NCBI RefSeq assembly: GCF_014652575.1
Contig: NZ_BMZB01000006.1
Location: 62,001-126,000, forward strand
DNA: 64,000 bases
Origin: Asticcacaulis endophyticus
GTDB lineage: Bacteria; Pseudomonadota; Alphaproteobacteria; Caulobacterales; Caulobacteraceae
Direction of reading: 5' to 3'
Under the pieces are notes generated by a model. It was given only the letters and a program-made list of their open reading frames with translations, did not search any database and was not told the DNA's origin. The translations under genes were made by a program, and so were the position numbers. Positions within the stretch are counted from its first letter, which is position 1. Each line of letters starts with the position of its first letter. Positions 46,038-63,855 of the stretch are shown in pieces.

Positions 46038-47234
46038 TCAGATACGGTATTGGCGCAGGCCCTGCGTCATGCGCTCCAGCGCCTGCGACATGCCGGTGAT
46101 ATCCTTGGCAAAACCGATGCGCACAGATCCCGCCGCGCCAAAATATTCGCCGGGCGCTACGCGAACATTATGGGTTTTGGCCAGCCAGTCTGAAAAGGCG
46201 ATGGTATCGTCTATGCCGACCAGTTTCGGGAAACAGATGCAGCCATGTTCAGGCAATTGGCCCTCAATCAGGCCTTCCGCACGCCATAGCTCGAAAAACC
46301 TGGCCATGACCGGACGGCTCTCCAGCATCACCTGACGGCGGTAGGCATCGTAGGCGTCATCCGCGTCGAGCACCAAAGCGGCGACGGCATGCGACAGGTT
46401 CGAGGTGGTGAAGTCGTAACGGCCCGCCACATCGCGCACGGGTGCCAGCGCTTCGGGCGCCCCCATTATCCAGCCGCAGCGAAGCGTCGACAGGCCATAG
46501 ATCTTGGTCAGGGAGTTGATAGCGATAAAGTGGGGCGAATATTTCACGGCCGATCCGGTGCGCGCGTCACCGGCATAGTCGCCGTAAACTTCATCGATCA
46601 TGACCTTAAGGCCATGAGCTTGCGCCAGTTCGGCAAGGGCCATGAGGGTCGCCTCATTTAGCAACATGCCCGATGGATTATGCAGATCCGACAGGACGAT
46701 AAGGCGGGTATCCGGGCGGATGCGAGCGCGCAGATCGTCCATATCAATGGCAAAATCGTCGCCGGTGCGTTGAAAATCCTCAACCTCGACCCCCATGCTG
46801 AGGGCCGTGGTCGCCAACAGGTCAAAGCGCGGCGTTTCAACGAGGATATGGTCACCCGCTGACAGATAGGCGCGGTAGACCAGGGCAATCGCGGTCGTGG
46901 CGGCGGACGTCGTCAGAATGTGATCCTGCGGCACGCCGTACCGGCGCGACAGGGCCCCCAGCACATAAGGGTTGCCGTTCACAAAGGCCGAGGTGTAGCG
47001 GTCGCTAAAACCGTCTGCGAAACCGGCGCTGATCGTTTGTTGCAGCAGGGCCTTGGGTTCATCGACCGAACTGTCGAACAGGACAAAGGCTTTGGCCCGA
47101 TCGGCCAGAGCCTGCCGCACCCACTGGGCATAGGACAGCGGCGGCCAGGCATCTGCGACCGAAGACAGAGGTGACGCCACAAGGCCGGTATCAGACCGGC
47201 TCAGCCGCGAGGAGATATTCATACTGTTTTCCAT
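46038..47234 (-). CDS. PLP-dependent class I/II aminotransferase
   Basis: A 398-residue cytoplasmic fold-type I enzyme. Motifs: GNPYVLGALSRRYGVP, TSAATTAIALVYRAY, IVLSDLHNPSGMLLNEATL (the Asn-Pro-type motif), VMIDEVYGDYAG (PLP-binding Asp/Tyr) and the Schiff-base lysine in INSLTKIYGLSTLRCGW. It resembles alanine/aspartate-type and aminotransferase-like proteins; specificity is not visible. It is the last gene of the minus-strand amino-acid/peptide run and converges on the MarR gene. Confidence 0.92.
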   Translation of the reverse strand: MENSMNISSRLSRSDTGLVASPLSSVADAWPPLSYAQWVRQALADRAKAFVLFDSSVDEPKALLQQTISAGFADGFSDRYTSAFVNGNPYVLGALSRRYGVPQDHILTTSAATTAIALVYRAYLSAGDHILVETPRFDLLATTALSMGVEVEDFQRTGDDFAIDMDDLRARIRPDTRLIVLSDLHNPSGMLLNEATLMALAELAQAHGLKVMIDEVYGDYAGDARTGSAVKYSPHFIAINSLTKIYGLSTLRCGWIMGAPEALAPVRDVAGRYDFTTSNLSHAVAALVLDADDAYDAYRRQVMLESRPVMARFFELWRAEGLIEGQLPEHGCICFPKLVGIDDTIAFSDWLAKTHNVRVAPGEYFGAAGSVRIGFAKDITGMSQALERMTQGLRQYRI

Positions 47235-47350
47235 ATGCGCCTACCCCGGTCAAAGGGTGGCTATGAGGAAAAATTTAGCTGATAATCCGGGCAATTCTTA
47301 TGTGAAGTGCTAAGGGTCAGACCCGGTTTTCGCATAAATTACATCGTATT

Positions 47351-48667
47351 CTACGGGTTGCGGGGCTGATTTATCCTTGAGCGAACCGCCCAGTAGATGA
47401 CGCCGATCACCGCCCAGACTGCCAAAAGGCCGTAAGGGCGCACATCGGCTTCGATACCGGCAAGTATCACCACAACCGCGCAGGCGGCCCCCAGATAGCC
47501 CAACCACAGCACGGAATTTTTCTTCCACTTCAAACCCGCATTAGCGTGCAGTTCGGGGTGATGCTTGACCAGATTGGTGGCGGAGATCGAGCAGGCCATA
47601 TATTTCAACATGGTCGGGATATTGACGGCCAGCAGCAAAAACACCAGATCATCTGGCAAAAAGATACCGGCAAGGCCTGCGCCCCAGCCGATCAGGATCG
47701 CCATATAGGGCGTGCCGAATTTCGGATGAATCTTATTGAACACGGAGGGCAGGGCGCCTTCGCGGCCCATAGCAAACAACGAGCGCGAAAAACCGAGCGC
47801 CAGACCATTGAGCGACTTCATGATCGAAATGGTGGCGGCCCCGATGATGACGGGGGCTGCCCATGGGCCAAGGGGAATTTTGGCGGCGTCCAGCAGTGGG
47901 GTTTTGGTACCCGCCAGCGCGTCCGGCCCGATCAGGCCCAGCGCCGTCACCGCCACCAGACCGTACACCACCAGCGTCAGCAGCACGGCCAGCACGATGC
48001 CGCGCGGCAGGGTTTTTTGCGGGTTTTTGACCTCTTCGCCGATTTCGACGGCGGCTTCGATGCCGAGAAACAGGGAGATCATTAGCGGCACACAGGCCAG
48101 AATGGCGACCCAGCCGTGACCGACGATCGGCTGGATGAGATCCATGCTGGTCATCGGCAGGCCGGTGAAGGTAAAGGCCGCCAGCACGATCAGCAGCAGA
48201 CCCATCAGCACGGTCTGGATACCCGACGCGATCGACACCCCGAAATAGTTGAGCGCAAAGGCAATGGTAATCGCCGCAGCCATGGTCGGTTTACGCGGCA
48301 GGTCGAACGCCATGCTTAAGTAACTGACCAGCACCGACGACAGCACAATGACCGCGCCGACATTGGCCACGATCCGCAGCCACGCAATCATGAAGCCGAC
48401 AAATGGGTGGATGAACCGGCGCGGCCATTCATAGGACGCCCCCGATGTGGGCAGGGCTGAGCCCATGAAGGCGTAGGATGAGGCAAACAGCACCATCGGG
48501 ATCGTAGCGATCAGCATGGCGATCAAAAGGCCGGAACCGGCGACCTGAGCTGCCGGTTGCAGCACCGAGAAAATCGACACGCCGATGGCGCTGCCCGCGC
48601 CAAACATGACCACGCCGGTCAGGCCGACGTTCTGTTTCAGGAGGCGCGAAGGTGTTGGTTCGGTCAT
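47351..48667 (-). CDS. APC-superfamily amino-acid permease
   Basis: A 438-residue protein with about 12 TM helices. The first helix region NVGLTGVVMFGAGSAIGVSI F carries the GxG unwinding motif typical of APC transporters; SLFLGIEAAVEIGEEVKNPQ KTLPRG is the conserved TM6/loop segment with E-V-K-N-P. It would import amino acids or their derivatives. Its start overlaps by ATGA the stop of the first S10 carboxypeptidase, tying import to peptide cleavage. Confidence 0.92.
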   Translation of the reverse strand: MTEPTPSRLLKQNVGLTGVVMFGAGSAIGVSIFSVLQPAAQVAGSGLLIAMLIATIPMVLFASSYAFMGSALPTSGASYEWPRRFIHPFVGFMIAWLRIVANVGAVIVLSSVLVSYLSMAFDLPRKPTMAAAITIAFALNYFGVSIASGIQTVLMGLLLIVLAAFTFTGLPMTSMDLIQPIVGHGWVAILACVPLMISLFLGIEAAVEIGEEVKNPQKTLPRGIVLAVLLTLVVYGLVAVTALGLIGPDALAGTKTPLLDAAKIPLGPWAAPVIIGAATISIMKSLNGLALGFSRSLFAMGREGALPSVFNKIHPKFGTPYMAILIGWGAGLAGIFLPDDLVFLLLAVNIPTMLKYMACSISATNLVKHHPELHANAGLKWKKNSVLWLGYLGAACAVVVILAGIEADVRPYGLLAVWAVIGVIYWAVRSRINQPRNP

Positions 48668-50178
48668 GGGGCGGTACTCGAAGCGGTGATAAAGGTGCGA
48701 AGATCGGCCGACAGGGCCTTACGGCTATCCGGGCCCATATAGGGCATGTGGCCGGAGTCGTAGGTTTTGAAGGTGACGGCTTTCAGGTCGATCCCTGAAT
48801 GCGCAAGGGTGTATTCGGCGGAACCGAGCGTGGTCACCAAATCATAGACGCCGGTGCCGACCATCAGTTTAAGCGACGGATTGCGGCGCATGGCGATGGC
48901 CAGATCGGTGGCATAATTCTTTGACGGCGGCGTACCGGCCCCGCCACCCCAGTCCCAGCGGGCATTGACGGTACGAAACTCAATCGCCTTGTAGGGCGCA
49001 TCGATTTTGACGCCGAGATTCTGGGTGAAGTGGGTATTAAGGGCGGCCAGATAACCCGGCACATACTGACCCATGGCCGGATCATCAGCGACCGGATCGC
49101 CGCCGGACGATTTGAGCGGCAGGGTGTAGCGGCCATCATACATGCCGATCTGGATGTTTTTCGAGGCCAGCACCTCAGAGGCAAATTCATTCAGACTGAC
49201 GCGCAAGTTTTGGCGCACGATATAGTCTTGCGTCAGGCCGGTCAGCGTCGACAGCTTTGCGGCCACGGCGGCTTTTTCGGACGGCGTGGCGCGATCACCG
49301 AGATAGAGCGCGCGCAAATAGTCTCCGGCGGCAAAGGCCTCGGCCTCGCTGATCTGTTTGGACAGCGTGGTCGCAGACTTATCGACGGCGCCGTGATACC
49401 AGGCGGTGGCGGCCATGGTCGGCAGGCCCGTAAGATAAGCGGTGTCGCCCTTGGGGGACATGTCCATCGCCTGACCCAGCAGGATAACGCCGTTGAGCGT
49501 CAGGCCGGTCATGGAGCCGGTTTCCGAGGGCCCTCCGGCCAGAAGTTTAGCTAAACGTGCGGCGCGGATGGTGCCGTAGGATTCGCCGACCACAAATTTG
49601 GGGGCACCCACGCGATCATATTGGCGCAGCCAGCCCTGAATGAAGCCAGCGGTGATTATGGCGTCCTGTTCCACGCCGAAGGCTTGGGATTCTTTACCCA
49701 TGACCACTTGCGAATAGCCGGTGCCGGGAGGGTCGAACAGGACGATATCGGCGACATCAAGCGGGCTGTCCGGGTTGTCGGTGATCTTAAACGGCGGGGT
49801 GGTTTCGGGCTTCACATCGTCAGTGAAGGCGACGCGCTTTGGGCCCATAATGCCCATGTGCAGCCAAACCGAGGCCGAACCGGGGCCGCCGTTGAAGACG
49901 AAAATAACCGGCCTGACCGTGCCTTTGGGTGTGTCGGTGCGGATATAGCTGGTGGCGACGATCTGGGCGATAGCCTGACCGTCTGCGCCCATGATCGGGG
50001 TTTGTTCGACCACGGCCTTATAACGGAGGGTCTTGCCGCCAAAGTTGCCGGAATGTTGGGTTTCAAAACGCATCGGTGCGGATGTCGCCGCGGTCTGGGC
50101 GAGGGCGGGGGCTGTGCTGATCGGGGCTGCCATCAGCACGGCGGCCAGAACCCATTTGGAGGCTGCGGTTTTCATCAT
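48664..50178 (-). CDS. Exported S10 serine carboxypeptidase (copy 1)
   Basis: A 504-residue protein with a signal peptide (WVLAAVLMAAPISTAPALA). The S10 oxyanion motif NGGPGSASVWLHMG (96-109) is followed by DPPGTGYSQ, the nucleophile S200 in GESYG, and the C-terminal Asp (VGTGVYDLVTTLGSAEYT) and His (YDSGHMPYMGP) of the triad. S10 enzymes release C-terminal residues at acidic pH. GGGG sits before the two adjacent ATGs. Its stop overlaps the APC permease start. It is about 30% similar to the two other S10 genes in this locus as judged by shared motifs, so these are old paralogues. Confidence 0.9.
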   Translation of the reverse strand: MMKTAASKWVLAAVLMAAPISTAPALAQTAATSAPMRFETQHSGNFGGKTLRYKAVVEQTPIMGADGQAIAQIVATSYIRTDTPKGTVRPVIFVFNGGPGSASVWLHMGIMGPKRVAFTDDVKPETTPPFKITDNPDSPLDVADIVLFDPPGTGYSQVVMGKESQAFGVEQDAIITAGFIQGWLRQYDRVGAPKFVVGESYGTIRAARLAKLLAGGPSETGSMTGLTLNGVILLGQAMDMSPKGDTAYLTGLPTMAATAWYHGAVDKSATTLSKQISEAEAFAAGDYLRALYLGDRATPSEKAAVAAKLSTLTGLTQDYIVRQNLRVSLNEFASEVLASKNIQIGMYDGRYTLPLKSSGGDPVADDPAMGQYVPGYLAALNTHFTQNLGVKIDAPYKAIEFRTVNARWDWGGGAGTPPSKNYATDLAIAMRRNPSLKLMVGTGVYDLVTTLGSAEYTLAHSGIDLKAVTFKTYDSGHMPYMGPDSRKALSADLRTFITASSTAP

Positions 50179-50186
50179 CTATCCCC

Positions 50187-50576
50187 TCATTTTACGTTTT
50201 TTAGGCTGACTTCGATTTCGACCTGCGCGCCGTAGGCCAGGGCTGATATCCCAAACGTCGTACACACCGGCAGGCACAGAGGCTTGAAATAGAGCCGGTA
50301 AATCTCAAATACCTCCTCTAGACGGCCAATATCAGTCAGCATCAGGCGGCATTTGAACACATCATCGAATGTGGCGCCGACCGTCTTTAATGAGGCCGCG
50401 ACATTGCGCATCATCTGCTCGGTTTGCTCGGCCAGAGTGTCAGGTACATTCCCGTCATCATCGTCGCCAATATGGCCGGACAGGTGCAGGATGCCGCCGG
50501 TTGAGACAGCTTCTGATGCCGGAAGGTCGAAATCGTAAGGCCAGTAAGCAATATCAGTAGTGGAAGTGGGCGCCAT
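50187..50576 (-). CDS. Rid/YjgF-family protein lacking the catalytic arginine
   Basis: A 129-residue protein of the RidA fold: TGGILHLSGHIGDDDDGN, QTEQMMRNVAASLKTVGATFDDVFKC and FGISALAYGAQVEIEVSL. RidA deaminates reactive 2-aminoacrylate imines and needs an Arg in the PARSxFGVxxL segment. Here that segment is LPVCTTFGISAL, with Cys in place of Arg. It may therefore be a binding or hydrolytic variant. It overlaps the amidohydrolase gene by 23 bases and is close to the first S10 gene. Confidence 0.85.
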   Translation of the reverse strand: MAPTSTTDIAYWPYDFDLPASEAVSTGGILHLSGHIGDDDDGNVPDTLAEQTEQMMRNVAASLKTVGATFDDVFKCRLMLTDIGRLEEVFEIYRLYFKPLCLPVCTTFGISALAYGAQVEIEVSLKNVK

Positions 50577-52656
50577 CGGACTCTCCGTGATCAGAGTGAT
50601 CGGATGCGGCGACCGGGCTGTCGGGCTTGGTCACCGTGGGCGCCGTGGTGAAGGGCGTGATGCCGAGCGCGTCATAGATCTCGTTCGGGAAATAGACAAA
50701 GCCGCCCTTGAGCACCATGCGGGTTTCACGCAGCGCGCTTAAGTCCTGGGTCGGATCGCCTTTGACGAGGAAAAAGTCGGCCAGCTTGCCGCGCTCAATC
50801 GTGCCCAGTTGCTGGTCGCGGCCCAGATAGACTTCCATGTCGTAGGTGCCGACCTTGAGCGCCTCCGCCGGGGTCATGCCGGCCTTGACATAGAGTTCCA
50901 GTTCGCGCTTGACCGAGAAGCCGAGCGTATCGTCGGTGCCCGGCAGTAATTGGATACCATTATCATGCAGCATCTTCATAATATCGACCAGCTTATCAAA
51001 GGCGGTGAAATAGCTGGCGTCTTCGGCAGCATCTTTCAGCGGCACATAGGTGCGCTTGCGGTAGCGCTGATAGCCGATAGGCATGTTCTTGAGGTACCAC
51101 GCATCGGCCGGATTGACCTTGCCCGCGCGGCTGAGCATCAGGCGCTCAACGATCACGGCGGTGGTATCAAGGCCCATGCCCTGAGCCTTCATGGTCGCAA
51201 CCGACGCCTGAACCGGGGCGGAATTGAGATCAAGCGTGGCCGCGCGGGCAAGGGCCGTCAGCCGCAGCGGCGTGCGGGTGTCCTCGCCGTCTTTCAGCAG
51301 CCAGCCCAGCACTAACTGGTTGATGTGCGTGATTTCGTCATAGCCGTCTTTCATGCCGCGATCAGGGCTGTAAAAGGCGGGGATATGACCGACCACATCC
51401 ATGCCGAGGCGGTGGGATTCAGCGGCGACGGCGGGAATCCAGTCGGGGTTGAAGCTGTTGTAGATTTTGAGCTGATAATAGCCGTGATCGGCGTACCAGC
51501 GCACAGCCTTCATCGCCTCATCTAATGACGACACCACAAATCCGTGGTTGGCGGAATAGGGGCTCTTGCCTTCGATAAAGCCGTTGCGGACGATGCGCGG
51601 GCCCGCGACCGTGCCTTCATTCATCAGGCGGATCTGAGTATCCAAAAAGCCGTTATCATTGCCCATGTCGCGCACCGAAGTGACACCTGATGCGAGCAGA
51701 AATAGCCCTGATGAGCGCGTGGTGTGGGAGTGCATGTCGTGCAGACCGGGCACCAGCGTGCCGCCTTCACCATCGATGATGGTCTCATCTTTTGGGGCGT
51801 TGGTCGCGGCCTCCGCTTCGGGCAGGATGGTGGCGATGGTGTCACCATTGACCACGACGCTGGACAGCGCGCTAAGCCTGCCGGTTTTGGGGTCGAGCAC
51901 CCGCACATTTTTGATACGCACCGGCCCGTCAAAGCGGTGGCCCAGTTCGGCCTGAAGGGTCTTCTGGCGCTCGGCCTCCAGTTCGCTGTTGAGCTTACCC
52001 AAGGCTTTGATCTCGGCCTCATAGCCTTTGCGCACCATATTGCCGGCGGCGAACAGTTCGTTTTGCTCATCGAGCAGGATATAGGCGGGGGCGAGGTCGA
52101 GGCCATCCAGACGGTAGATGGTGACCGCAATCGCCTGATCGCCCTGACCGACATCGAGGGTTTTGATCGCTTGCAACCGCGCCGATCCGCCGGGCAGGGT
52201 CTCGGCGGTCTGGTTCGGCTGGGTCAGCAGGTAGCGGGCATATATGGCCAGGTCGTATGGGTTGGAATCGTTGACGATATAAATCTTGGGGGCTTTCAGC
52301 GCCATCTTGCCTGAATCCGCCTGTGACGACCAGGTGAATGTTGTGCCCTTGATGGCAAAGGTCTCATTGACAGCGCCACCCATCAGGGAGGTTCCGGCAA
52401 CCGTACCTGCGACCGGAAGGCCCTTATCGTTCAGGGTGATGGTTTGCTTGTGCTTGGGGCCACGGCCATTGTCATCAACGACGTAGTCGATATTGAGGGT
52501 TTTGCCCTTATCGGCAGCGGTTTCCACCACCTCGACATGGCCGACATTCTCGCCGTTCTGGATGATGACAAAGCTGGCGTCAGCCAAGGCTGCGGTCGCA
52601 AAGCCTAATCCAAACACGGTCGTCAACAGGGCGGAACGGATCAGGCGTCGGGTCAT
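50554..52656 (-). CDS. Exported metal-dependent amidohydrolase
   Basis: A 700-residue protein with a signal peptide (MTRRLIRSALLTTVFGLGFA TAALA). About 250 N-terminal residues form a separate beta-rich region (ASFVIIQNGENVGHVEVV...). The amidohydrolase barrel follows, with HxH in VPGLHDMHSHTTRSSG, a Lys in YYQLKIYNSFNP, His in VVGHIPAFY and EITHINQ, and the Asp in LLPGTDDTLGF. The end is a His/Asp-rich tail. It may cleave N-acyl or dipeptide-like substrates in the periplasm. The start at 52656 follows the OCD stop by 13 bases. Confidence 0.88.
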   Translation of the reverse strand: MTRRLIRSALLTTVFGLGFATAALADASFVIIQNGENVGHVEVVETAADKGKTLNIDYVVDDNGRGPKHKQTITLNDKGLPVAGTVAGTSLMGGAVNETFAIKGTTFTWSSQADSGKMALKAPKIYIVNDSNPYDLAIYARYLLTQPNQTAETLPGGSARLQAIKTLDVGQGDQAIAVTIYRLDGLDLAPAYILLDEQNELFAAGNMVRKGYEAEIKALGKLNSELEAERQKTLQAELGHRFDGPVRIKNVRVLDPKTGRLSALSSVVVNGDTIATILPEAEAATNAPKDETIIDGEGGTLVPGLHDMHSHTTRSSGLFLLASGVTSVRDMGNDNGFLDTQIRLMNEGTVAGPRIVRNGFIEGKSPYSANHGFVVSSLDEAMKAVRWYADHGYYQLKIYNSFNPDWIPAVAAESHRLGMDVVGHIPAFYSPDRGMKDGYDEITHINQLVLGWLLKDGEDTRTPLRLTALARAATLDLNSAPVQASVATMKAQGMGLDTTAVIVERLMLSRAGKVNPADAWYLKNMPIGYQRYRKRTYVPLKDAAEDASYFTAFDKLVDIMKMLHDNGIQLLPGTDDTLGFSVKRELELYVKAGMTPAEALKVGTYDMEVYLGRDQQLGTIERGKLADFFLVKGDPTQDLSALRETRMVLKGGFVYFPNEIYDALGITPFTTAPTVTKPDSPVAASDHSDHGESDGAHFHY

Positions 52657-52669: not shown

Positions 52670-53641
52670 TTAAGCGGTGGCTTTGGCGTGGATATAGGCG
52701 GCGGAACAGAGATCCTGCACGACATGGCCCAGCGATTTGTAAAAGGTGATATCGGTATCGCTGCGGCGGCCAATGACCGTACCGTTCAGGACTTCGCCGA
52801 TTTCCGCGACAATGTGGTCGTCGCTAATCAGACCGGCCTCTTTGGCGACCAGAAATTCAGCGCCTGCGGCCAGCACCGAGCGGCGGCTGTCGGCAATATA
52901 GCGTGAGGCGACGACAAGATCGTTATCGACCTCGACCGGGCCGGGGCCGGAGGAGCCGACGATATTCAGGTGGGTGCCGTCTTCGACCCAGTCTCTAAAC
53001 AGGATCGGCTCAGATGACCCGGTGGTGGTGCAGATGATATCAGCCCCTTTGCAGGCATCGGGGGCGGAGGCGACGGCATAGACCCTCAAGCCCGTGGATA
53101 AGGCCATGTCGGCGGCGAAATTGGCCGCCTTATCATAGTCACGCGCCCAGATGCGCACGTCCTCTAAATCGCGGACATGGCGGAGGGCCTCGATGTGGGA
53201 TTTGGCCTGAGCTCCCGCGCCAAAGATCGTCAGGCGTTTGGCGCACTTGCGCGCCAATGCGTCGGTCGCCACGGCAGAGGCGCAGGCCGTGCGGATTTCG
53301 GTGACTTCGCCCGCATCAGCCGAGCAGACTAACTCTCCGGTTTTCGGATCAAACACGATGATCAGGCCATGATGCTTTGACCTGCCCGGATTTTCAGGAT
53401 TACGCACGACCGAAATGATCTTACCGCCATAGATGCCGAGTTTATCCGCCGCGGCCTCATCCATCAGAAACCCTGGCATAAGGGCCAGAACCTTAAGCGG
53501 CGCCAGTGGAATGATGGTGCGCAAGGGCTGGGGCGCTTCGGAGGCTGAGAACGCCGCCATCGCCAGCCGCACGGCCGCGATGCAGCCGGGATAATCCAGC
53601 CATTTTATGACGGCGGTGGGATCATAGTGGGCGTAACTCAT
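52670..53641 (-). CDS. Ornithine cyclodeaminase / mu-crystallin family NAD-dependent enzyme
   Basis: A 323-residue Rossmann protein. The nucleotide-binding motif is LTIFGAGAQAKSHIEAL, near residue 140, and NIVGSSGPGPVEVDNDLVVA and YIADSRRSV are family features. Members include ornithine cyclodeaminase, alanine dehydrogenase and ketimine reductase. The ATG overlaps the stop of the second S10 gene (ATGA). It would act on an amino acid released by the peptidases, or on a cyclic imine; it cannot be assigned further. Confidence 0.9.
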   Translation of the reverse strand: MSYAHYDPTAVIKWLDYPGCIAAVRLAMAAFSASEAPQPLRTIIPLAPLKVLALMPGFLMDEAAADKLGIYGGKIISVVRNPENPGRSKHHGLIIVFDPKTGELVCSADAGEVTEIRTACASAVATDALARKCAKRLTIFGAGAQAKSHIEALRHVRDLEDVRIWARDYDKAANFAADMALSTGLRVYAVASAPDACKGADIICTTTGSSEPILFRDWVEDGTHLNIVGSSGPGPVEVDNDLVVASRYIADSRRSVLAAGAEFLVAKEAGLISDDHIVAEIGEVLNGTVIGRRSDTDITFYKSLGHVVQDLCSAAYIHAKATA

Positions 53642-55152
53642 TGGCCCTCCTTAAGGAAGGCGCGGATATCAACGCCCAGTTTTTCCAGCGCCTTTGAATT
53701 GGAATAGTTCATATGCCCGCCTTCGTAATAGGTCAGGCGGGTATTGGCCTTGGGCCATCCGGCCTGTTTCAAAAGGTACTCCGAGCCGCCAACGGTGGTT
53801 TGGGTGTCGTACCAGCCGACGCCAACCATGATCTTCATCTTCGGCTGGGTTTTTAGCACATCGGTCAGCATCGAAAAATAGGGCCAGTCGCTAAACGGCC
53901 CCTTGCCATAGCCCCAGTCCCAGCCGTCCAACCCGCCGGTGACGGGGCTGTTGGTCAGATATTTGACCTCGGTTTTGATGTTCAGAAAATCGCGGGCATA
54001 AGGAACAAAGCCATTAATCATGGCATTGGGGGCCACACTTGATGGATCACCCTTATCGAGCGGGCCTGTGTAGCGGGTGTCGGCCATGCCGATGATCAGG
54101 CCTTTGTCCTTAAACAGCAGGCGGCGATAGGCTTCCTTGGAAATGCGCAGGCGGGCATCGGCAAAGGTTTTGGCGGGAACACCCGTGAACCCTTCCAGCT
54201 TTTTTGCGACCGCATCGCGCTCCGCGTCAGGCAAATCGCCGCCGCGATAAAGGGCCGCGAGGTACTCGGTGTCGGCAAAGCTGCGCGCCTCGGCCACAAA
54301 AGCCTCAAGCGACAGCCCGCGGGTATCGACCGCCTTGTGATACCAGGCGGTGGCGGCCAGCGTCGGGAGCGACACGACATAGGAAATGATATTGGTCGGA
54401 CGCTGGACATAATCGACGATATTGGCGGCCTGCCCAAACAGAACGACCCCGCCAAGGGTCAGAGGTGTCTCATCCTCAGCCAGCTTTTTGGCGATCTGCG
54501 GGGCGCGCATGGTGCCGTAGGATTCGCCAAAGATATAGACGGGAGAGGCTTCGCGGCCGCGCGATTTGACCCACTGGGTGATGACCTGCGCGAACTGCTC
54601 ACCATCGGCTTCGACCGAAAACCAGTCTTTCAGGTCAGTGCCGGGCAGGGGGCGGCTGTAGCCGGTGCCCGCCGGATCAATGAACACCAGGTCGGCGACC
54701 TCAAGCGGCGCATTGGGGTTATCGACCAGCTTAAACGTAGACGGATCGGCGCTTAAGTCATCGGGCATATGCACGCGCTTAGGGGCAAAGGCACCCATGT
54801 GCAGATAAACCGACGGGCTGATCGGGCCGCCGTTAAAGATGAACATCACCGGGCGGTTCGCGGTCTTTGATTTGGCCTCATAGGAAAAGGTTACGACCGA
54901 CAAAGCGTCACTGCCGGACTTATCCTTGACGATATAGGGGGCAGCGGTGGCGGTATAGTCGATCTTTTGGCCGCCAAACGTGCCCTTGTGCTTGGTGACT
55001 ACGGCGTCACCAAACGCGGCGGGCGCGAAGTTTTCAGCCACAGATGGCGGCGTTTGCGCGAATGCGGGCAGGGCAGCGCCTGCACATAAGATGAGGGCTA
55101 GCGCGCCCACTACGGAATTTTGGGCGGCTTTACGGACGGTTCGCACAGTCAT
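53638..55152 (-). CDS. Exported S10 serine carboxypeptidase (copy 2)
   Basis: A 504-residue protein from ATG 55152 (GGGGA seven bases upstream), with a signal peptide (NSVVGALALILCAGAALPAF A). It has the nucleophile in GESYGTMRA, Asp in MVGVGWYDTQTTVGGSEYLL and His in YEGGHMNYSNS. The oxyanion segment reads NGGPISPSVYLHMGAF: the usual NGGPGS has Ile in place of the second Gly, unlike the other two copies. The stop overlaps the ornithine-cyclodeaminase gene by four bases. It starts the downstream five-gene run. Confidence 0.9.
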   Translation of the reverse strand: MTVRTVRKAAQNSVVGALALILCAGAALPAFAQTPPSVAENFAPAAFGDAVVTKHKGTFGGQKIDYTATAAPYIVKDKSGSDALSVVTFSYEAKSKTANRPVMFIFNGGPISPSVYLHMGAFAPKRVHMPDDLSADPSTFKLVDNPNAPLEVADLVFIDPAGTGYSRPLPGTDLKDWFSVEADGEQFAQVITQWVKSRGREASPVYIFGESYGTMRAPQIAKKLAEDETPLTLGGVVLFGQAANIVDYVQRPTNIISYVVSLPTLAATAWYHKAVDTRGLSLEAFVAEARSFADTEYLAALYRGGDLPDAERDAVAKKLEGFTGVPAKTFADARLRISKEAYRRLLFKDKGLIIGMADTRYTGPLDKGDPSSVAPNAMINGFVPYARDFLNIKTEVKYLTNSPVTGGLDGWDWGYGKGPFSDWPYFSMLTDVLKTQPKMKIMVGVGWYDTQTTVGGSEYLLKQAGWPKANTRLTYYEGGHMNYSNSKALEKLGVDIRAFLKEGQ

Positions 55153-55184
55153 GATCAATTCCCCTGCTCATGTTTTGTGACAGT

Positions 55185-55791: not shown

Positions 55792-57228
55792 TTACTCTTT
55801 GATAAAGGCTCTGATCTGATCGGCCTTGGCCGTCAGATTGTCAGCGGGGTTAAAGACCGAATGGCCGGTGGCATAGGCGTTGAACGTGACGCGATCCAGC
55901 GGCATGTCGGCATGTTCGATCTCATAGCGCGCCGCCCAAACGGGCGTGGCCAGGTCGAAATAGCCGCCAACCACCATCATCTTAAGGTCGGGCCGGTCTT
56001 TCATCAGGGTGGCCAGATCGGGGGTGACGTTCATCACGAACTGCCGGTCCTTGTTCATATCGTCCCAGTTCCACTGAAAGTTCAGCTCTAGCGACAGCGA
56101 CACATAGTCGGTGGTGGCCGGAAAGTTCAGCTCATCCTTAAGGTAGCGGGTGATCAGGGGCGATGTGATGATATTGGATTTACCAAGGCCCAGTGACGGA
56201 TCATTAGCGGCGGCGGGGCGGTTCGGATTGGCAGGCGGGGCTATGGGAGCCACAACCCGCATATCGAGCCGGCCGGTCAACTGGTCTTTGTCGGCGTTGA
56301 GGGCTTCAAGGTAAGTCTGGCTGCCGACGCGCAGATTGGCCGCGAGTATCGTCTCCACCGGCAGGCCGATCAGGCCGGACAGGCCCTTGGCCACGTCGGT
56401 TTTTTCCGCATGTGTGATCTGCGCGCCTTTGAGCAGGGCCGGGGCGTAGGTCGAGATCGCAAAGCTTTGCGCGTCGTTGAATATGGCCTCAAGGCTGCGG
56501 CCTTTTCTGTCGATTTTGTTGTGGTGCCAGGCGCCTGCGGCCAGGGTCGGTAGTTCCAGAACCTGCCCCATGTCGCGCGATTCTGACATATTGAGCGACG
56601 GCGAAATCAGGATCAGCCCTTTGAGATTGGGTAAGGTTTTGTCCTTGGCGATCTGGCCTGACATGACCGCCAGCCGGTAGCCGCCATAGCTTTCCCCGGC
56701 AATATAGAGCGGAGAGGTTTCGCGACCATTGGCTTTGAGCCATTTGGCAATCAGGCCGTGGACGGCGGCGGCATCGTGATTGACGCCTAAGAAACTGCGC
56801 AACTCATCGGCTTTAAAAACACGACTAAGGCCCGTCCCCGGCGGGTCGATAAACACCAGATCGGCGGCATCCAGCAGGGTATCGGGATTGTCGATCAGGG
56901 CGTCTTTGTCGCGGATGCGCGGGCCGAACGCCGACATATGCAGCGGGGATGATGACGCTCCGGGGCCGCCATTGAAAAAGACGATGACGGGGCGTGTCGC
57001 CTTATCGCCGTCGCGGACATAAGAAATGGCCGACAGGGAGACGACGGCTTCGCCTTTATCGTTTTTCAAAATCTCTTCGGTAAAACCGGCGGTGTAGTTA
57101 AGGGTAGTTTGGGATTGAGTCAGGGTGCGTGGGGTGGTGACGTTGATCGCGTCCTGGGCGGTTGCGGGCGATAACATCAGCCCCAGCGACATGGCAATTG
57201 CCATCACAGATGCACAGGCGCGTCGCAT
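55792..57228 (-). CDS. Exported S10 serine carboxypeptidase (copy 3)
   Basis: A 478-residue protein with a signal peptide (MRRACASVMAIAMSLGLMLS PATA). It has NGGPGASSSPLHMSAFGP, DPPGTGLSR, the nucleophile in GESYGGYRLA, the Asp in VVGGYFDLATPVWAARYE and the His in YATGHSVFNP. The start at 57228 has AGGGG upstream; longer frames cross the promoter area. The gene precedes lrp on the same strand, so regulator and peptidase are co-transcribed. Confidence 0.9.
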   Translation of the reverse strand: MRRACASVMAIAMSLGLMLSPATAQDAINVTTPRTLTQSQTTLNYTAGFTEEILKNDKGEAVVSLSAISYVRDGDKATRPVIVFFNGGPGASSSPLHMSAFGPRIRDKDALIDNPDTLLDAADLVFIDPPGTGLSRVFKADELRSFLGVNHDAAAVHGLIAKWLKANGRETSPLYIAGESYGGYRLAVMSGQIAKDKTLPNLKGLILISPSLNMSESRDMGQVLELPTLAAGAWHHNKIDRKGRSLEAIFNDAQSFAISTYAPALLKGAQITHAEKTDVAKGLSGLIGLPVETILAANLRVGSQTYLEALNADKDQLTGRLDMRVVAPIAPPANPNRPAAANDPSLGLGKSNIITSPLITRYLKDELNFPATTDYVSLSLELNFQWNWDDMNKDRQFVMNVTPDLATLMKDRPDLKMMVVGGYFDLATPVWAARYEIEHADMPLDRVTFNAYATGHSVFNPADNLTAKADQIRAFIKE

Positions 57229-57325
57229 ACTCAGGCCCCTTCTTGATATGCTGATCGTAGGTGGAAACATTAACACCGCTTGGGGGTAGTTTGTCGCTTT
57301 TTTGGCGGAGTGGTAGCGGTAAAAT

Positions 57326-57403
57326 GTATAAATCATGCAGGATTTGAAATTTATACGCATTTATTAGTCTGCGCTGCGTTTTCTTAACCGGCATAAATCA
57401 TGC
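57326..57403. promoter_or_regulatory. Divergent regulatory region between S10 copy 3 and the Tat-exported PLP gene
   Basis: In the 301-base gap 57229-57529, GTATAAAT and ATTTATAC are perfect 8-base arms at 57326-57356. An exact 11-base direct repeat, ATAAATCATGC, occurs at 57328-57338 and 57393-57403. These are good candidates for the Lrp-family site controlling both directions. Confidence 0.5.
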
Positions 57404-57529
57404 GCCGTCGGATGGTTTTTGTGGCCGCAGGGGCGCTTATGTCATCAAAATAGATGCAGTTGGGCTAAAAATTTCAACGATTGCTTATATCATCATCCCC
57501 ATACTGAGTTTTGAGCAAGGGTCATCCTT

Positions 57530-58828
57530 ATGCCGGTAACGCGTCGTGATTGGTTAAAAACTGCGGGGGTAGCATCGGTGGGAACTGTGGGCGCAATGGC
57601 CAGTATGGGGGCCGCATTTGGCGGAACCGCAACAGCGCATACCGCTGCCGCACCGGCGACAGACCCGTTTGCCGGGCCGGATAAACCCGTCAGCTTTCCG
57701 GATAAGACCTCGTTTGGGCCGATGGAGGTGACCTACCTCAATTCCGGCACCATGCATCCGTTCAGCACAGGCGCAAAGGCGGCCTTAGAGGCCTATCAGG
57801 CCAAGCGCTTTATGGACCCGGCCTTTCAGGGCGTGCAGCTTAATGAAAAACGCGTGCTGGAGAAATTCGCCAAGCTGATCAATGCTGAGGCCGACGAAGT
57901 CACATTTGTTCAGTCCACGACTATGGGCGAAAACATGATCGTGGCGGGGCTGGGGCTGGCGGATTCAAAAGCCCGGATCGTCACCGACACCCTGCATTTC
58001 TTTGGCTCGATCCCGCTCTATGAGGAACTGGCCAAACAAGGTTGTGAGGTGGTCTGGGTGCGCGACCGCGACGGCCGCATTGACCTTGAAGACATCAAAA
58101 AGGCCATCACGCCGGGCACCAAGTTTGTCGCCCTGTCGCTGGTCTCGACCATCAATGGCTTTGAGCACGACCTTAAGGCTGTGTGCGATCTGGCTCATGC
58201 TCAAGGGGCGCTGGTCTATGCCGACATCATCCATGCGGCGGGCTGCGTGCCGGTCGATGTCAAGGCGACCGGCGTCGATTTTGCCGCCTGCGCCAGCTAT
58301 AAGTGGCTGATGGGCGATTTCGGCATGGGCTTTGTCTATGCCCGTAAGGACGTGCAAAAGCTGATCAAACGCCCGTTCGTCGGCTATTACGGCATGAGCG
58401 CGTTCAAAAGCCATATCTATCCCTATGATACGCCGGGGGATACCATTGCCGACTATGCCTTTGATGACGGGGCGCGCGGCTTGTTTGCGGTCGGCACCAG
58501 CTCAGAATCCCTACTGGCCCAGCTTGATTATTCGTTGGGCTACATCCTGACCAATGGGGTGGACCGTATTCAGGCCCATGCCCAGACTTTGACGGATCAC
58601 CTTAAGGCTGAACTGCCCAAACGCGGCTACAGGCTGATGACGCCTACGGATGCGAAAACACCGATGGTGGCCTGCGTGCTGGAAAATGCGCGCACAAAGC
58701 TTAATCCGGCGCTGGAGGCGGCTAAGATCAGGATCACCGTGTCTCAGCACCGTTTCCGCTATTCGGTGTCGGTATTCAACGATCACGCCGATATCGAGCG
58801 GGCCTTAGCGGCGCTTCCCAAAATCTGA
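57530..58828 (+). CDS. Tat-exported PLP-dependent class V aminotransferase-like enzyme
   Basis: A 432-residue protein. The N-terminus PVTRRDWLKTAGVASVGTVG is a classical twin-arginine signal followed by a hydrophobic Ala/Gly stretch, so a folded cofactor-containing enzyme would be exported. The class V fold shows TLHFFGSIPLYEELAKQGCE, the PLP-contacting D232 with H235 (VYADIIHAAG) and the Schiff-base lysine K258 in CASYKWLMGDFGMGF. PvdN of pseudomonads is a known Tat-exported relative. It begins the plus-strand group with three metallopeptidases; its substrate may be an amino acid or peptide end in the periplasm. Confidence 0.88.
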   Translation: MPVTRRDWLKTAGVASVGTVGAMASMGAAFGGTATAHTAAAPATDPFAGPDKPVSFPDKTSFGPMEVTYLNSGTMHPFSTGAKAALEAYQAKRFMDPAFQGVQLNEKRVLEKFAKLINAEADEVTFVQSTTMGENMIVAGLGLADSKARIVTDTLHFFGSIPLYEELAKQGCEVVWVRDRDGRIDLEDIKKAITPGTKFVALSLVSTINGFEHDLKAVCDLAHAQGALVYADIIHAAGCVPVDVKATGVDFAACASYKWLMGDFGMGFVYARKDVQKLIKRPFVGYYGMSAFKSHIYPYDTPGDTIADYAFDDGARGLFAVGTSSESLLAQLDYSLGYILTNGVDRIQAHAQTLTDHLKAELPKRGYRLMTPTDAKTPMVACVLENARTKLNPALEAAKIRITVSQHRFRYSVSVFNDHADIERALAALPKI

Positions 58829-60635: not shown

Positions 60636-60662
60636 TGCCGCCTGTAAATTGTGAGACGCAAT

Positions 60663-62363
60663 ATGCGTAGTTTTTTTCTGAGTGCGTCCCTGATGGTTTT
60701 GGCAGCCGGGGCGGTCGCTGAGCCGCTGAAACTCGACCTGACTCTGACGCCGCAGGTGTCGGCGGGTGCCGTCACCGGCTGGTCCGTCGAGAGCCGCTTT
60801 GACACCACGGCGGGCGATCCGGTCATGCGCTTTACGATCCCGAAAACCCTGGGGCCGTTGCAGCGTATTCCTGACCGCCTCAGCCATATCACCGCCCACG
60901 ATGACAAGGGGCTGCTTAACCTGACGGCATCGGACGGCACCGGCTATATGGGCGCACCGGCGCAGATTTTCACGACCGATCGCGCGCCGGTGGGCGATGT
61001 GATCCTAAGCTATGATGTAGCAACTTCGCAGGAAACCATTTCCGGCCCGAACTGGGAATTGCGCGCAGAGGGGCCAGGGTCGAGCGCACAAGGATCATCG
61101 ATCCTGCTGCTGCCCGATCAGGAAAAACCCTATGAGGTTAGCATCCGCTGGGATCTGAAACAGTTGCCGCAGGGGGCGCGCTCGATCACGTCTTATGCGC
61201 GCGATCCGAAGGCGGTGACCGAGCCGATCAGCCGCCTGCGTCAAACCTATTTTATGGCCGGAAATCTGATCTCCACCCCCGATGACTTGACGACGCCGAG
61301 TGTGTTCCGCGCCGCCTCGACTGCCATCAATAACCACCCGCAGAAGCCGCTGCTCGACTGGTCATCCGATGCCTACACGCGCATGTCGGGCTATTTCGGA
61401 TTCTCATCGCCGCCGCCGTTTACGGTGCTGATGCGCTCCAACATCTATGGCGGCACCAGCGGCACGGCAGGCCCGGAAGGCCTGATTGCGACCATGGCCC
61501 CGCAGGCAAGCGAACTGGGCATTAAGAGCCTGATTTCCCATGAAATGGTCCATGTCTATCTGCATGGTCTGATGGAAGCCGATGACAGCGGTCGTAATCC
61601 GGATGCCGGCTGGTTTACTGAAGGCATTGCCGTCTACTATCAGCGCCGCGCCCCGTTCATGACCGGCCTGTTTACGCCCGATCAGTTCCTGGAGGATTTT
61701 AACGAAACGGCGCGCGCCTATTATTCCAATATCCGCATTAACGTTGCGATGTCTGAGGCGATCAAGAACTTCTGGACCGATCCGCGGCAGCGCATCCAGC
61801 CCTATAACCGCGGGTCGATGTATTTCCATGTGCTTGACGGTCAGATTCGCGCCAAATCGGGGGGGGAGCGCACGCTGGATGATGTGGTGCGCGCCTATCT
61901 GAAACGGCACAATGACGGTTTGTCGGTGACCGAAAAAGACTGGATGGATTTGCTGGTGGCGGAACTGGGTCCACAGGCCAAAACCGAGTTTGAGGCTATG
62001 ATGAACGGTGCCGTGCAAATTCCGGCGTCGAACGCTTTGGGGATATGTTTTAAACGCGTCGAAACCCGGATGCCGGTGTTTGAACTGGGCTTTGAGATGT
62101 CGAGCCTGATCAACCGGCCGCGGGTGATTGCGGGTCTCGATCCGGTCTCTCCGGCCGCGAAGGCAGGTCTAAAAGACGGCGATGTCGTCACCAATACCCT
62201 GATTATCGACGCGATTCAGGACGACCCACGCGAGCCGATCACCTTGAAGATCGAGCGCGACGGGCAAAAGCATGACATCACCTTCAGCCCGCAGGGGCGC
62301 CTGACCAAGGGCTATCTGTGGCAGCGGGTCAAAGGTGTTTCCGATAAAAAGTGTGCGGTGTAA
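60663..62363 (+). CDS. Exported gluzincin metallopeptidase with PDZ domain (copy 2)
   Basis: A 566-residue paralogue with a signal peptide (RSFFLSASLMVLAAGAVAE). The zinc motif is HEMVH (H293, E294, H297), with E320 in WFTEGIAVYY. The PDZ-like part reads PVSPAAKAGLKDGDVVTNTL. The cysteine pair LGICFKRV and the terminal KKCAV are conserved with the other copies. The ATG at 60663 is taken over a GTG at 60651; the ribosome site is weak. The next copy starts one base after its stop. Confidence 0.85.
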   Translation: MRSFFLSASLMVLAAGAVAEPLKLDLTLTPQVSAGAVTGWSVESRFDTTAGDPVMRFTIPKTLGPLQRIPDRLSHITAHDDKGLLNLTASDGTGYMGAPAQIFTTDRAPVGDVILSYDVATSQETISGPNWELRAEGPGSSAQGSSILLLPDQEKPYEVSIRWDLKQLPQGARSITSYARDPKAVTEPISRLRQTYFMAGNLISTPDDLTTPSVFRAASTAINNHPQKPLLDWSSDAYTRMSGYFGFSSPPPFTVLMRSNIYGGTSGTAGPEGLIATMAPQASELGIKSLISHEMVHVYLHGLMEADDSGRNPDAGWFTEGIAVYYQRRAPFMTGLFTPDQFLEDFNETARAYYSNIRINVAMSEAIKNFWTDPRQRIQPYNRGSMYFHVLDGQIRAKSGGERTLDDVVRAYLKRHNDGLSVTEKDWMDLLVAELGPQAKTEFEAMMNGAVQIPASNALGICFKRVETRMPVFELGFEMSSLINRPRVIAGLDPVSPAAKAGLKDGDVVTNTLIIDAIQDDPREPITLKIERDGQKHDITFSPQGRLTKGYLWQRVKGVSDKKCAV

Positions 62364-62364
62364 C

Positions 62365-63855
62365 ATGATCAAGGTTTTACTCCCCATCGCCGCCGTTCTG
62401 GCCGCGGGTGCCGCTCAAGGGCAAGTGCTCGACATGACCTGGAAGCCGGTGCGCAATGCGGGCGGTGAGGTCTCGGCTATCGAAGTCACGCAGGTCGTCA
62501 ATGGTGTGGCGGGCGATAAGCCGTTTGGGCTCAATGCGCCGGTAACCTATGCCGCCGTGACCGGCGTGGCCGATCGTATTACGGGCCTCAAGGTCACCGA
62601 CCGCGACGGCGAGATCAGCTTTACCGTGTCGGAAGACAAGCCCGTCTCCGGCGGCTTTCCCTATTACCGCCACTGGACGGCCACGCGCGCCATCACCTAT
62701 CCGGTAACGGTCAGCTATAGTGCGCTGGTACAACCGCCAAACAGTCTCGGCGGCCCGGCCTTTGGCATCCGCCCGTCAGGCGGTGGGGTGTCAGGATCGG
62801 GCGGTGGCTTTCTCATGCTGCCGGAAAATGCCGGAACGACGAGCTCAAAAGTCACCTGGGACTTAAGCGGACTTGAGGCCGGATCGGTCGGGGTGACCAC
62901 CTTTGGCGAAGGCGCGTTTGAGCTCAAGGGCGCGCCACAGGCTTTGACCGGCGGCTGGCTGATGGCCGGGCCTGCCCAGCATTACGCCATTCCCGGAGAT
63001 AGCCATTTCAATGCCTACTGGCTGGGGGCGCTGCCGTTCGATGCCGAGGCTGAGATGGTGTGGGCGTCGAAGGCCTATAAGGTGCTGTCCACCTCATTCA
63101 AATATATGGACCCGGCGCCGGATTACCGGGTGTTTCTGCGTGGCCTTAAGACCCCGCCGTTTGGCGGTGGTACGGCGCTGGGCAACTCCTTCATGTTTTC
63201 GATGAGTGAAACCGCCCAAAAAGATATCCATGACATCCGCATCACCATTTTTCACGAAATGGGCCATCAGTGGGTCGGTGGGATCGAAGGCGGGGTGGCC
63301 GACAACTGGTTCACCGAAGGGCTGAATGTCTATTACACCACCATCCTGCCGCTGCGGGGCGGGCTGGTCAGCTTGGACGAATATGCAGCCCTTTTGAATG
63401 AGCAGGTCGCCAACTATTACACGTCACCGGCGCGCAACTGGTCGGCGGACAGGATCGTCGGTGTCGGCTTTGGTGATGAGAAAATCCGCCACACGCCCTA
63501 TGTGCGTGGCGCGCTGTACTGGGCCGATCTGGATGTCAAAATCCGCGAGAACTCCAAAGGCAAACGCACTCTTGATAGCTTCCTGGCGCCGATGTTTGCG
63601 GCACGCCATAAGGGCGAGCGTTTTGACCGGGCCTATTTCGAGGCCATGCTGACGGCAGAACTGGGGCCGCAGGCGGTTGCCGATTTCCGCGCCATCAATA
63701 TCGACGGCACTAAAACGATCGATCCGTCGCCCAAGGCGTTTGGGCCGTGCTTTACGCGTAAGGCCGCACAATTGCCCGGAAAAGACGGCGTGGTGGACGG
63801 TTTTCAATATATCCGCCTGAAAACCGTCGCGAATAAAAAATGCGCACGCTGGTAA
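62365..63855 (+). CDS. Exported gluzincin metallopeptidase without PDZ domain (copy 3)
   Basis: A 496-residue paralogue with a signal peptide (KVLLPIAAVLAAGAAQGQ). The zinc motif is HEMGH (H297, E298, H301), with E318 in WFTEGLNVYY. It keeps FGPCFTRK and the terminal NKKCARW, but only about 33 residues separate them, against about 100 in copies 1 and 2. The PDZ domain is therefore missing. The ATG is one base past the TAA of copy 2, so the three are co-transcribed. No gene follows up to the window end. Confidence 0.85.
   Translation: MIKVLLPIAAVLAAGAAQGQVLDMTWKPVRNAGGEVSAIEVTQVVNGVAGDKPFGLNAPVTYAAVTGVADRITGLKVTDRDGEISFTVSEDKPVSGGFPYYRHWTATRAITYPVTVSYSALVQPPNSLGGPAFGIRPSGGGVSGSGGGFLMLPENAGTTSSKVTWDLSGLEAGSVGVTTFGEGAFELKGAPQALTGGWLMAGPAQHYAIPGDSHFNAYWLGALPFDAEAEMVWASKAYKVLSTSFKYMDPAPDYRVFLRGLKTPPFGGGTALGNSFMFSMSETAQKDIHDIRITIFHEMGHQWVGGIEGGVADNWFTEGLNVYYTTILPLRGGLVSLDEYAALLNEQVANYYTSPARNWSADRIVGVGFGDEKIRHTPYVRGALYWADLDVKIRENSKGKRTLDSFLAPMFAARHKGERFDRAYFEAMLTAELGPQAVADFRAINIDGTKTIDPSPKAFGPCFTRKAAQLPGKDGVVDGFQYIRLKTVANKKCARW

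What the first reader, a model, noticed from the sequence alone, without database searches (positions are those of the whole stretch)
46038..63855. Periplasmic peptide-processing and amino-acid catabolism island
About 18 kb holds three exported S10 carboxypeptidases, three paralogous exported gluzincin peptidases, an exported amidohydrolase, a Tat-exported PLP enzyme, a Rid-like protein, an ornithine-cyclodeaminase homologue, an APC permease, an aminotransferase and an Lrp regulator. Several genes overlap by ATGA, showing tight operons in both directions. Such a combination is far more than general protein turnover and suggests a dedicated pathway for an unusual peptide (modified, cyclic or D-containing). 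The substrate and the pathway as a whole are inference.
Basis: partly seen in the sequence, partly recalled or inferred. Interest (0 to 1): 0.75.

Follow-up and report, generated by a model that had tools for sequence, protein, structure and literature searches.

The report
Mobile kit for breaking down peptides
A 21-kilobase set of genes, found together in many distantly related bacteria, appears to import a peptide, take it apart outside the inner membrane and use its amino acids; the peptide itself is still unknown.

Summary

The genes form a co-inherited module. Of 31 genomes in a 398-genome order sample that carry its Tat-exported PLP enzyme, 27 hold all nine core families (TonB receptor, S10, M61, amidohydrolase, OCD-fold enzyme, Lrp, PLP enzyme, aminotransferase, APC permease), in 19 arrangements. 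A close relative seems to have lost it in one 20.9-kb deletion that left stubs of the aminotransferase and receptor genes. The PLP-enzyme tree rejects one Caulobacteraceae clade (AU p 5e-7), which suggests transfer.

Most likely it imports peptides, dismantles them in the periplasm and passes amino acids to cytoplasmic metabolism. New here: among 25 of 80 loci with a Rid match, 15 have a signal-bearing Rid and 7 a Rid fused to the exported amidohydrolase. A Sphingobium variant without the peptidases sets the PLP enzyme beside a Rid in 13 of 13 loci, and adds a Tat-exported amine oxidase in 6. The window's own Rid has lost both export signal and active-site Arg.

The substrate ('modified, cyclic or D') stays untested. 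Ten library searches (listings only) showed no description of the module.

The parts
46038..47234 (-). AT: cytoplasmic class I/II PLP aminotransferase (best NCBIfam models GntC, PRK07324 and VioD, all far below cut-off)
   Evidence: signal-like N terminus in 0 of 43 relatives
47351..48667 (-). APC-family amino-acid permease
48664..50178 (-). S10a: exported serine carboxypeptidase; its stop overlaps the APC start by ATGA
50187..50576 (-). Rid-fold protein; here without signal peptide and with Cys in place of the Rid Arg
50554..52656 (-). AHase: exported amidohydrolase with an extra N-terminal domain of about 260 aa; fold of L-Lys/L-Arg carboxypeptidase Cc2672 and Xaa-Pro dipeptidase; metal ligands HxH, K, H, H, D invariant
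52670..53641 (-). OCD/mu-crystallin-fold NAD(P) enzyme, probably an imine/ketimine reductase; its start overlaps the S10b stop by ATGA
53638..55158 (-). S10b: exported serine carboxypeptidase
55300..55785 (-). Lrp/AsnC-family regulator
55792..57228 (-). S10c: exported serine carboxypeptidase (longest ORF to 57360; signal peptide starts at 57228)
57229..57529 (.). Intergenic region between the minus-strand run (S10c-Lrp-S10b-OCD-AHase-Rid-S10a-APC-AT) and the plus-strand run (PLPtat-M61a-b-c-TonB receptor)
   Evidence: gene layout; promoter function inferred, not scanned
57530..58828 (+). PLPtat: Tat-exported fold-type I PLP enzyme, SufS/CsdA-like but without the SufS catalytic-Cys loop
58944..60635 (+). 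M61a: exported gluzincin, aminopeptidase-like (HExxH...E)
60651..62363 (+). M61b: exported gluzincin, aminopeptidase-like, weak PDZ match near the C terminus
62365..63855 (+). M61c: exported gluzincin, aminopeptidase-like. The next and last gene of the module, the TonB-dependent receptor, lies beyond the window at window-coordinate 64225-67227 (L004 725-3727, + strand)
   Evidence: receptor: matched in 30 of 31 module genomes of the order sample

Best explanation
The region is the greater part of a 21-kb, probably horizontally shared catabolic module (window-coordinate 46038-67227) for TonB-dependent uptake and periplasmic dismantling of peptides. Proposed route: the TonB receptor brings a peptide through the outer membrane; three distinct S10 carboxypeptidases trim it from the C terminus, the M61 enzymes from the N terminus, and the exported metallo-amidohydrolase splits the last dipeptides; the Tat-exported PLP enzyme converts one particular residue or peptide end by chemistry that can release an imine or enamine, which in relatives with an exported Rid is hydrolysed there; the APC permease carries amino acids inward, where the aminotransferase and an OCD-fold imine reductase process them; Lrp senses the amino acid. 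Shown: gene content, export signals, intact catalytic residues, co-inheritance. Inferred from family knowledge: direction of flow, peptidase roles, regulation. Guess: the residue handled by the PLP enzyme.
For: Fixed set, free order: 27 of 31 PLPtat genomes hold all nine core families, 2 hold eight; 19 arrangements among the 27 (reverse counted as same, Rid ignored, copy number counted), one shared by 9. Of the 26 complete, 25 span 17.4-22.4 kb; the other was joined from two contigs. PLPtat and an AHase match of 600 bits or more occur together in 28 genomes, alone in 3 and 4, neither in 363 of 398 (p 2e-35, genomes not independent). Loss: relative G013 keeps stubs of AT (59 bp, 85%) and receptor (37 bp, 92%) between collinear flanks. 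Signal-like N termini: S10 154/162, M61 47/49, AHase 36/42, PLPtat 74/83 (73 with RR), against OCD 0/51, Lrp 0/50, AT 0/43 (edge-cut copies without a signal left out). Catalytic residues invariant: S10 triad in 18, AHase metal ligands in 18, M61 HExxH...E in 14. S10 profile finds KEX1, CPDW-II and CPY. S10a/b/c labels need 8 changes on their tree (minimum 2, shuffled 44.8).
Against: No substrate, expression or enzyme data. In the window's genome Rid is cytoplasmic and lacks the active-site Arg, so the periplasmic imine step cannot use this Rid; a search with the window's Rid finds one in only 13 of 31 order-sample loci. G132 has PLPtat with only an OCD match and an APC fragment. G160, G286, G137 and G044 have the AHase orthologue but no PLPtat; G137 has M61, APC, AT, OCD, AHase and one S10 together without PLPtat, Lrp or receptor, so PLPtat is not needed in every form. 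In 13 Sphingobium-type loci PLPtat stands without the peptidases. M61 and S10 Pfam scores are modest. PLPtat reaches no NCBIfam cut-off, so its reaction is open.
Confidence: 0.62

Rival explanations
1. Generalist scavenging: the module is an ordinary peptide-utilisation locus that degrades whatever oligopeptides the receptor admits, and the PLP enzyme and Rid merely handle common amino acids.
For: Peptidases for both termini; Lrp-type regulation; AHase fold of dipeptidases and carboxypeptidases; wide distribution over Alpha-, Beta- and Gammaproteobacteria.
Against: A fixed set of nine families with three mostly separate S10 subfamilies kept side by side, a Tat-exported PLP enzyme and patchy presence within the genus suggest something more specific.
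Confidence: 0.27
2. Peptide resistance: the module inactivates a peptide antibiotic or toxin that enters through the receptor, with feeding secondary.
For: Patchy distribution and signs of transfer; bottromycin amidohydrolase is among the AHase structural matches (rank 26).
Against: A dedicated uptake receptor, an inner-membrane permease and cytoplasmic amino-group enzymes fit use rather than defence; no peptide-biosynthesis genes were noticed beside it, but none were searched for.
Confidence: 0.07
3. Peptide tailoring: a periplasmic maturation pathway for a secreted peptide, like the pyoverdine steps done by PvdN and PtaA.
For: PLPtat is a Tat-exported fold-type I PLP enzyme like PvdN; the Sphingobium variant has a Tat-exported aminotransferase related to PtaA (309 bits, cut-off 500). 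Passages of PMC6206403 describe PvdN and PtaA as periplasmic and Tat-transported.
Against: Seven exported peptidase-like enzymes would endanger a product; no synthesis or export genes were noticed among the neighbours, though none were searched for; PvdN model score 40.3 against cut-off 650.
Confidence: 0.04

Closest known systems
TonB-dependent nutrient utilisation loci (receptor, periplasmic hydrolases, inner-membrane transporter, regulator; recalled)
   Same: Receptor, exported hydrolases, permease and regulator kept together.
   Different: The hydrolases are peptidases, and the set includes an exported PLP enzyme and in some relatives an exported Rid; no such locus appeared in the listings.
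Pyoverdine periplasmic tailoring enzymes PvdN and PtaA (Pseudomonas)
   Same: Tat-transported PLP enzymes working in the periplasm on a peptide (PMC6206403, passages).
   Different: PLPtat scores 40.3 on the PvdN model (cut-off 650) and here sits among peptidases; a PtaA-like partner was seen only in 10 of 13 Sphingobium-type loci.
SufS/CsdA cysteine desulfurases
   Same: Fold (TM to query length 0.68-0.75 over the 50 hits listed) and PLP-site residues.
   Different: Exported, and the loop with the catalytic Cys is missing.
Caulobacter L-Lys/L-Arg carboxypeptidase Cc2672 and Xaa-Pro dipeptidases (amidohydrolase superfamily)
   Same: Best structural matches of AHase; full metal ligand set.
   Different: About 20% identity and an added N-terminal domain of about 260 aa; in seven Hyphomonas/Henriciella-type loci a C-terminal Rid domain.
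RidA imine/enamine deaminases
   Same: An exported Sphingobium Rid matches RidA structures over the domain, active-site Arg included; Arg kept in 23 of 26 module Rids.
   Different: Signal peptide, or fusion to an exported enzyme; the window copy lacks both signal and Arg.
Delta1-pyrroline-2-carboxylate reductase and mu-crystallin ketimine reductase
   Same: Nearest solved relatives of the OCD-fold protein (E 2e-43 and 1e-39).
   Different: Substrate not tested; scores below all NCBIfam cut-offs shown.

Membership tests
MEROPS S10 serine carboxypeptidases (S10a, S10b, S10c) | Pfam PF00450 above its cut-off | tested here: met
   40.3, 52.2 and 62.7 bits, cut-off 21.9; only part of the profile is matched
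MEROPS S10 serine carboxypeptidases (S10a, S10b, S10c) | Ser-Asp-His triad, NGGPG stretch and the Asn/Glu that hold the substrate carboxylate (roles recalled from carboxypeptidase Y) | tested here: met
   N88, G89, G90, P91, E191, S192, D430, H461 invariant in 18 sequences, the three window copies included
MEROPS S10 serine carboxypeptidases (S10a, S10b, S10c) | Carboxypeptidase activity | not testable with these tools
   needs an enzyme assay
MEROPS M61 glycyl aminopeptidases | PF05299 above cut-off and HExxH...E zinc site | tested here: met
   25.4, 23.2 and 28.2 bits, cut-off 22 (weak); H298, E299, H302, E319 invariant in 14
SufS-type cysteine desulfurase (PLPtat) | Catalytic Cys loop and model cut-off | tested here: not met
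   loop absent in profile alignments to 8d8s and 7e6a; sufS model 99.9 bits, cut-off 475.1
PvdN (PLPtat) | NCBIfam NF051467 cut-off | tested here: not met
   40.3 bits, cut-off 650
Tat-exported protein (PLPtat) | Twin-arginine signal peptide | tested here: met
   TRRDWLK in the window; 73 of 83 PLPtat copies have RR before a signal-like stretch (home-made rule)
RidA deaminase (window Rid) | Active-site Arg (RidA Arg105, number recalled) | tested here: not met
   Cys at that column in window, L152 and L153; Arg in the other 23 of 26 rows
RidA deaminase (window Rid) | TIGR00004 cut-off | tested here: not met
   63.2 bits, cut-off 106.25
Ornithine cyclodeaminase (OCD-fold protein) | Closer to ornithine cyclodeaminase than to reductases of the superfamily | tested here: not met
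   1u7h E 2.4e-22 against pyrroline-2-carboxylate reductase 2.1e-43 and mu-crystallin type 1.4e-39
Amidohydrolase-superfamily peptidases such as Cc2672 (AHase) | Binuclear site HxH, Lys, two His, Asp (assignment recalled) | tested here: met
   H309, H311, K397, H424, H444, D575 invariant in 18; fold match
TonB-dependent utilisation locus | Receptor linked to exported hydrolases, permease and regulator | tested here: met
TonB-dependent utilisation locus | Induction by, and growth on, its substrate | not testable with these tools
   needs RNA-seq and growth tests

The most novel reading that the evidence does not exclude
The module and its Sphingobium variant are two forms of an extracytoplasmic amino-acid catabolism: PLP-dependent deamination or decarboxylation outside the inner membrane, with a dedicated exported Rid that hydrolyses the imine product there, and in part of Sphingobium also a Tat-exported FAD amine oxidase beside an exported cytochrome c. 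That would place imine-forming amino-acid chemistry and its Rid-type hydrolysis, which I know only from the cytoplasm and organelles, in the periplasm.
Probability: 0.4. Interest if true: 0.8.

Novelty: new variant of a known kind. Interest (0 to 1): 0.6.

Why it matters
It turns a list of generic annotations into a defined 21-kb unit shared by Proteobacteria of several classes (274 stretches that encode a relative of its PLP enzyme at E 1e-3 were found in the scan of 84,980 genomes; the best 80 were kept). If right, many sphingomonads, hyphomonads and caulobacters carry a dedicated peptide-feeding route that generic annotation does not show, and exported Rid proteins indicate that reactive imines are made outside the inner membrane. 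The nine-gene set gives a handle for finding the peptide.

Tried and rejected
Rejected: chance clustering (same nine families in 27 of 31 genomes, 19 arrangements). GH35, MarR and EamA neighbours as part of the module (kept on both sides of the deletion in G013; GH35 matched in 2 of 80 loci). Cysteine desulfurase (Cys loop missing). Ornithine cyclodeaminase proper. The best NCBIfam hit of AT, a guanitoxin-pathway enzyme model, is far below cut-off (166.6 of 415) and gets no weight. Considered, not pursued: Lys/Orn peptides as substrate, from AHase's nearest fold and the ketimine-reductase-like OCD; only a guess.

Limits. Counts are lower bounds: loci reach at most 10 kb each side, and 12 of 80 are 20 kb or shorter; matches under 60 bits were dropped, so it missed Sphingobium Rids that one search found. 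Only the best 80 of 274 loci were returned. The signal-peptide rule is home-made; it left out copies at a locus edge without a signal and matches under 85 aa; it also fires on 45 of 49 permeases, as expected for membrane proteins. The output was cut in the middle; the AHase-Rid fusions are read from its first and last blocks and agree with open frames of 823-886 aa. The order count (25) took a locus and its reverse as different; one search mends this and adds DNA for G122, which raised complete sets from 26 to 27. The PLPtat tree is a quick one with long branches; the clade tested is a taxonomic family but was tested after the tree was seen, and paralogy is not excluded. The 600-bit AHase cut-off was chosen after seeing the list; G366 falls under it because its gene is split over two contigs. 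Fisher p treats related genomes as independent. GH35, GH27 and cytochrome c labels are read from sequence or recalled, not from a family search. That the window is Asticcacaulis follows from near identity to named records.
Full report
WHERE IT IS. The window is part of a 3.95-Mb genome in 13 contigs. Its nearest named relatives in PLPtat are two Asticcacaulis records (97% and 93%), so the genus is taken as Asticcacaulis.

WHAT IS THERE. Two gene runs face away from 57229-57529. Minus strand: S10c, Lrp, S10b, OCD-fold enzyme, amidohydrolase (AHase), Rid, S10a, APC permease, aminotransferase (AT). Plus strand: Tat-exported PLP enzyme (PLPtat), M61a, M61b, M61c and, about 370 bases on and outside the window, a TonB-dependent receptor at window-coordinate 64225-67227. 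The ATGA overlaps at 48664-48667 and 53638-53641 are real. The three S10 genes are the only PF00450 matches in the genome.

IS IT A UNIT? Four tests say yes. (1) Conserved set, free order. PLPtat at 46% identity or more occurs in 31 of 398 genomes of the order sample; six more have matches of about 31%. Around it, 27 of the 31 hold all nine core families and 2 hold eight (G159, G239); G383 holds five on a 12.5-kb contig and G132 two, a true exception. The 27 show 19 arrangements, one of them shared by 9 genomes, when a locus and its reverse count as one and Rid is ignored (copy-number differences count as different). Of the 26 sets complete, 25 span 17.4-22.4 kb; the other, G366, was joined from two contigs. 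S10 is present in three or more copies in 28 of 31. (2) Co-occurrence. PLPtat and an AHase match of at least 600 bits occur together in 28 genomes, PLPtat alone in 3, AHase alone in 4, neither in 363. Weaker AHase relatives are common (129 of 398 at E 1e-60), so only orthologue-grade matches track the module. (3) Loss. Within the genus, 4 of 25 genomes hold the two- or three-S10 set (G000, G003, G008, G012) and four others a single S10, which is only 30-32% identical to the window's. G003, G008 and G012 are collinear with the window, receptor included. The close relative G013 lacks the module; between its GH35 and MarR genes lie a 59-bp stretch that matches the AT 3' end (85%) and a 37-bp stretch that matches the receptor 3' end (92%). 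The simplest reading is one deletion of about 20.9 kb; the flanking GH35, MarR and EamA genes are outside the module. (4) Transfer. The PLPtat tree rejects a single Caulobacteraceae clade (AU p 4.8e-7); Caulobacter and Brevundimonas group with Steroidobacter, while Asticcacaulis lies elsewhere, near Nitrospirillum with modest support (80). Old paralogy is not excluded. Related loci occur in Alpha-, Beta- and Gammaproteobacteria.

WHAT THE PARTS DO. S10: triad and carboxylate-binding residues are invariant in 18 sequences, and a profile finds KEX1, wheat carboxypeptidase II and carboxypeptidase Y; a single-sequence search with S10b found no solved relative at E 0.001. The labels S10a, b and c, given by best match to the window, need 8 changes on the tree of 95 copies (minimum 2; shuffled mean 44.8), so the subfamilies are mostly but not fully separate. 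M61: zinc site invariant in 14; Pfam scores only just pass the cut-off. AHase: good model (pLDDT 88.4), best structural matches Cc2672 and Xaa-Pro dipeptidases, metal ligands invariant in 18. PLPtat: model pLDDT 86.5, SufS/CsdA fold, but the SufS Cys loop is missing; RR signal in 73 of 83 copies. OCD-fold enzyme: nearest solved relatives are a pyrroline-2-carboxylate reductase and mu-crystallin; 10 of 31 order-sample loci hold two copies.

EXPORTED RID. Among the 80 loci, 25 have a Rid match to the window's Rid. Of these, 15 have a signal-like N terminus and 7 have Rid fused to the C terminus of the exported AHase. The other 3 are two Asticcacaulis loci and Duganella. The active-site Arg is present in 23 of 26 aligned Rids and missing only in the three Asticcacaulis copies, the window's included. 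So where a Rid is present it is usually extracytoplasmic, next to an extracytoplasmic PLP enzyme, and the window shows a derived, probably inactive Rid.

SPHINGOBIUM VARIANT. In 13 loci with a different receptor and no peptidases, PLPtat stands beside a Rid in 13, with a receptor in 12, a PtaA-like aminotransferase in 10, and a FAD amine oxidase, a cytochrome c and a second Rid in 6. N termini: a twin-Arg signal in all 10 aminotransferases and all 6 amine oxidases; a signal peptide at the cytochrome c in 5 of 6; at the Rid next to PLPtat in 9 of 13, the other 4 unsettled because the true start is unclear; at the second Rid seen in 2 of 6, the rest unsettled. The absence of peptidases counts against a strict peptidase link but for periplasmic imine chemistry.

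RESULTS AGAINST. G137 holds M61, APC, AT, OCD, AHase and one S10 together without PLPtat, Lrp or receptor. G160 and G044 have only the AHase match in the stretches fetched, and G286 Lrp, AHase and S10c at a contig end, all without PLPtat. A search with the window's Rid finds one in only 13 of 31 order-sample loci, so Rid is not a core part. No activity or expression data exist here, and the substrate is unknown.

MECHANISM. Import by the receptor, trimming from both ends, dipeptide cleavage, PLP step, uptake of amino acids and cytoplasmic amino-group handling under Lrp: order and direction are inferred from family knowledge. Precedent for periplasmic PLP enzymes on peptides is PvdN and PtaA, both Tat-transported with bound cofactor (PMC6206403, passages seen). 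I hold the module claim at about 0.95, periplasmic peptide use at about 0.8, and a specific residue handled by the PLP enzyme at about 0.5.

LITERATURE. Ten searches of the open library were used. Searches looked for the gene combination, 50 for M61 history, 68 and 85 for periplasmic PLP enzymes, 69 for exported Rid. Searches returned nothing; one search listed 10 of 28. I saw listings and abstract starts only, plus passages of PMC6206403. None of these described the module or an exported Rid; most subscription papers and all bioRxiv preprints are missing from that library, so this is weak evidence of absence.

Noticed in passing
L214:3639-11638 and 12 further Sphingobium-type loci: Locus with TonB receptor, exported Rid, Tat-exported FAD amine oxidase, exported cytochrome c, Tat-exported PtaA-like aminotransferase, PLPtat and a second Rid: apparently a wholly periplasmic amine/amino-acid pathway (all seven genes in 5 of 13).
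   Followed up: partly
L242:8681-8766 (G013): Deletion scar with stubs of the aminotransferase and TonB receptor genes where the module seems to have been.
   Followed up: yes
L048:14588-16098 (G012): S10a is split over two reading frames in this otherwise complete copy of the module.
   Followed up: no
L173, L174, L177, L179, L181, L192, L205: Amidohydrolase and Rid form one exported protein; three (L173, L192, L205) end in a membrane-anchor-like stretch.
   Followed up: partly
L170, L186, L195: Two PLPtat matches (43-47% and 56-58% to the window) in one locus of Betaproteobacteria.
   Followed up: no
window 50554-50600: His-rich C-terminal tail on the amidohydrolase, overlapping the Rid start; a similar tail in L212.
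   Followed up: no
G137:C7 (L285, L234, L284): Partial set (M61, APC, AT, OCD, AHase, S10) without PLPtat, Lrp or receptor: a possible simpler form of the module.
   Followed up: partly
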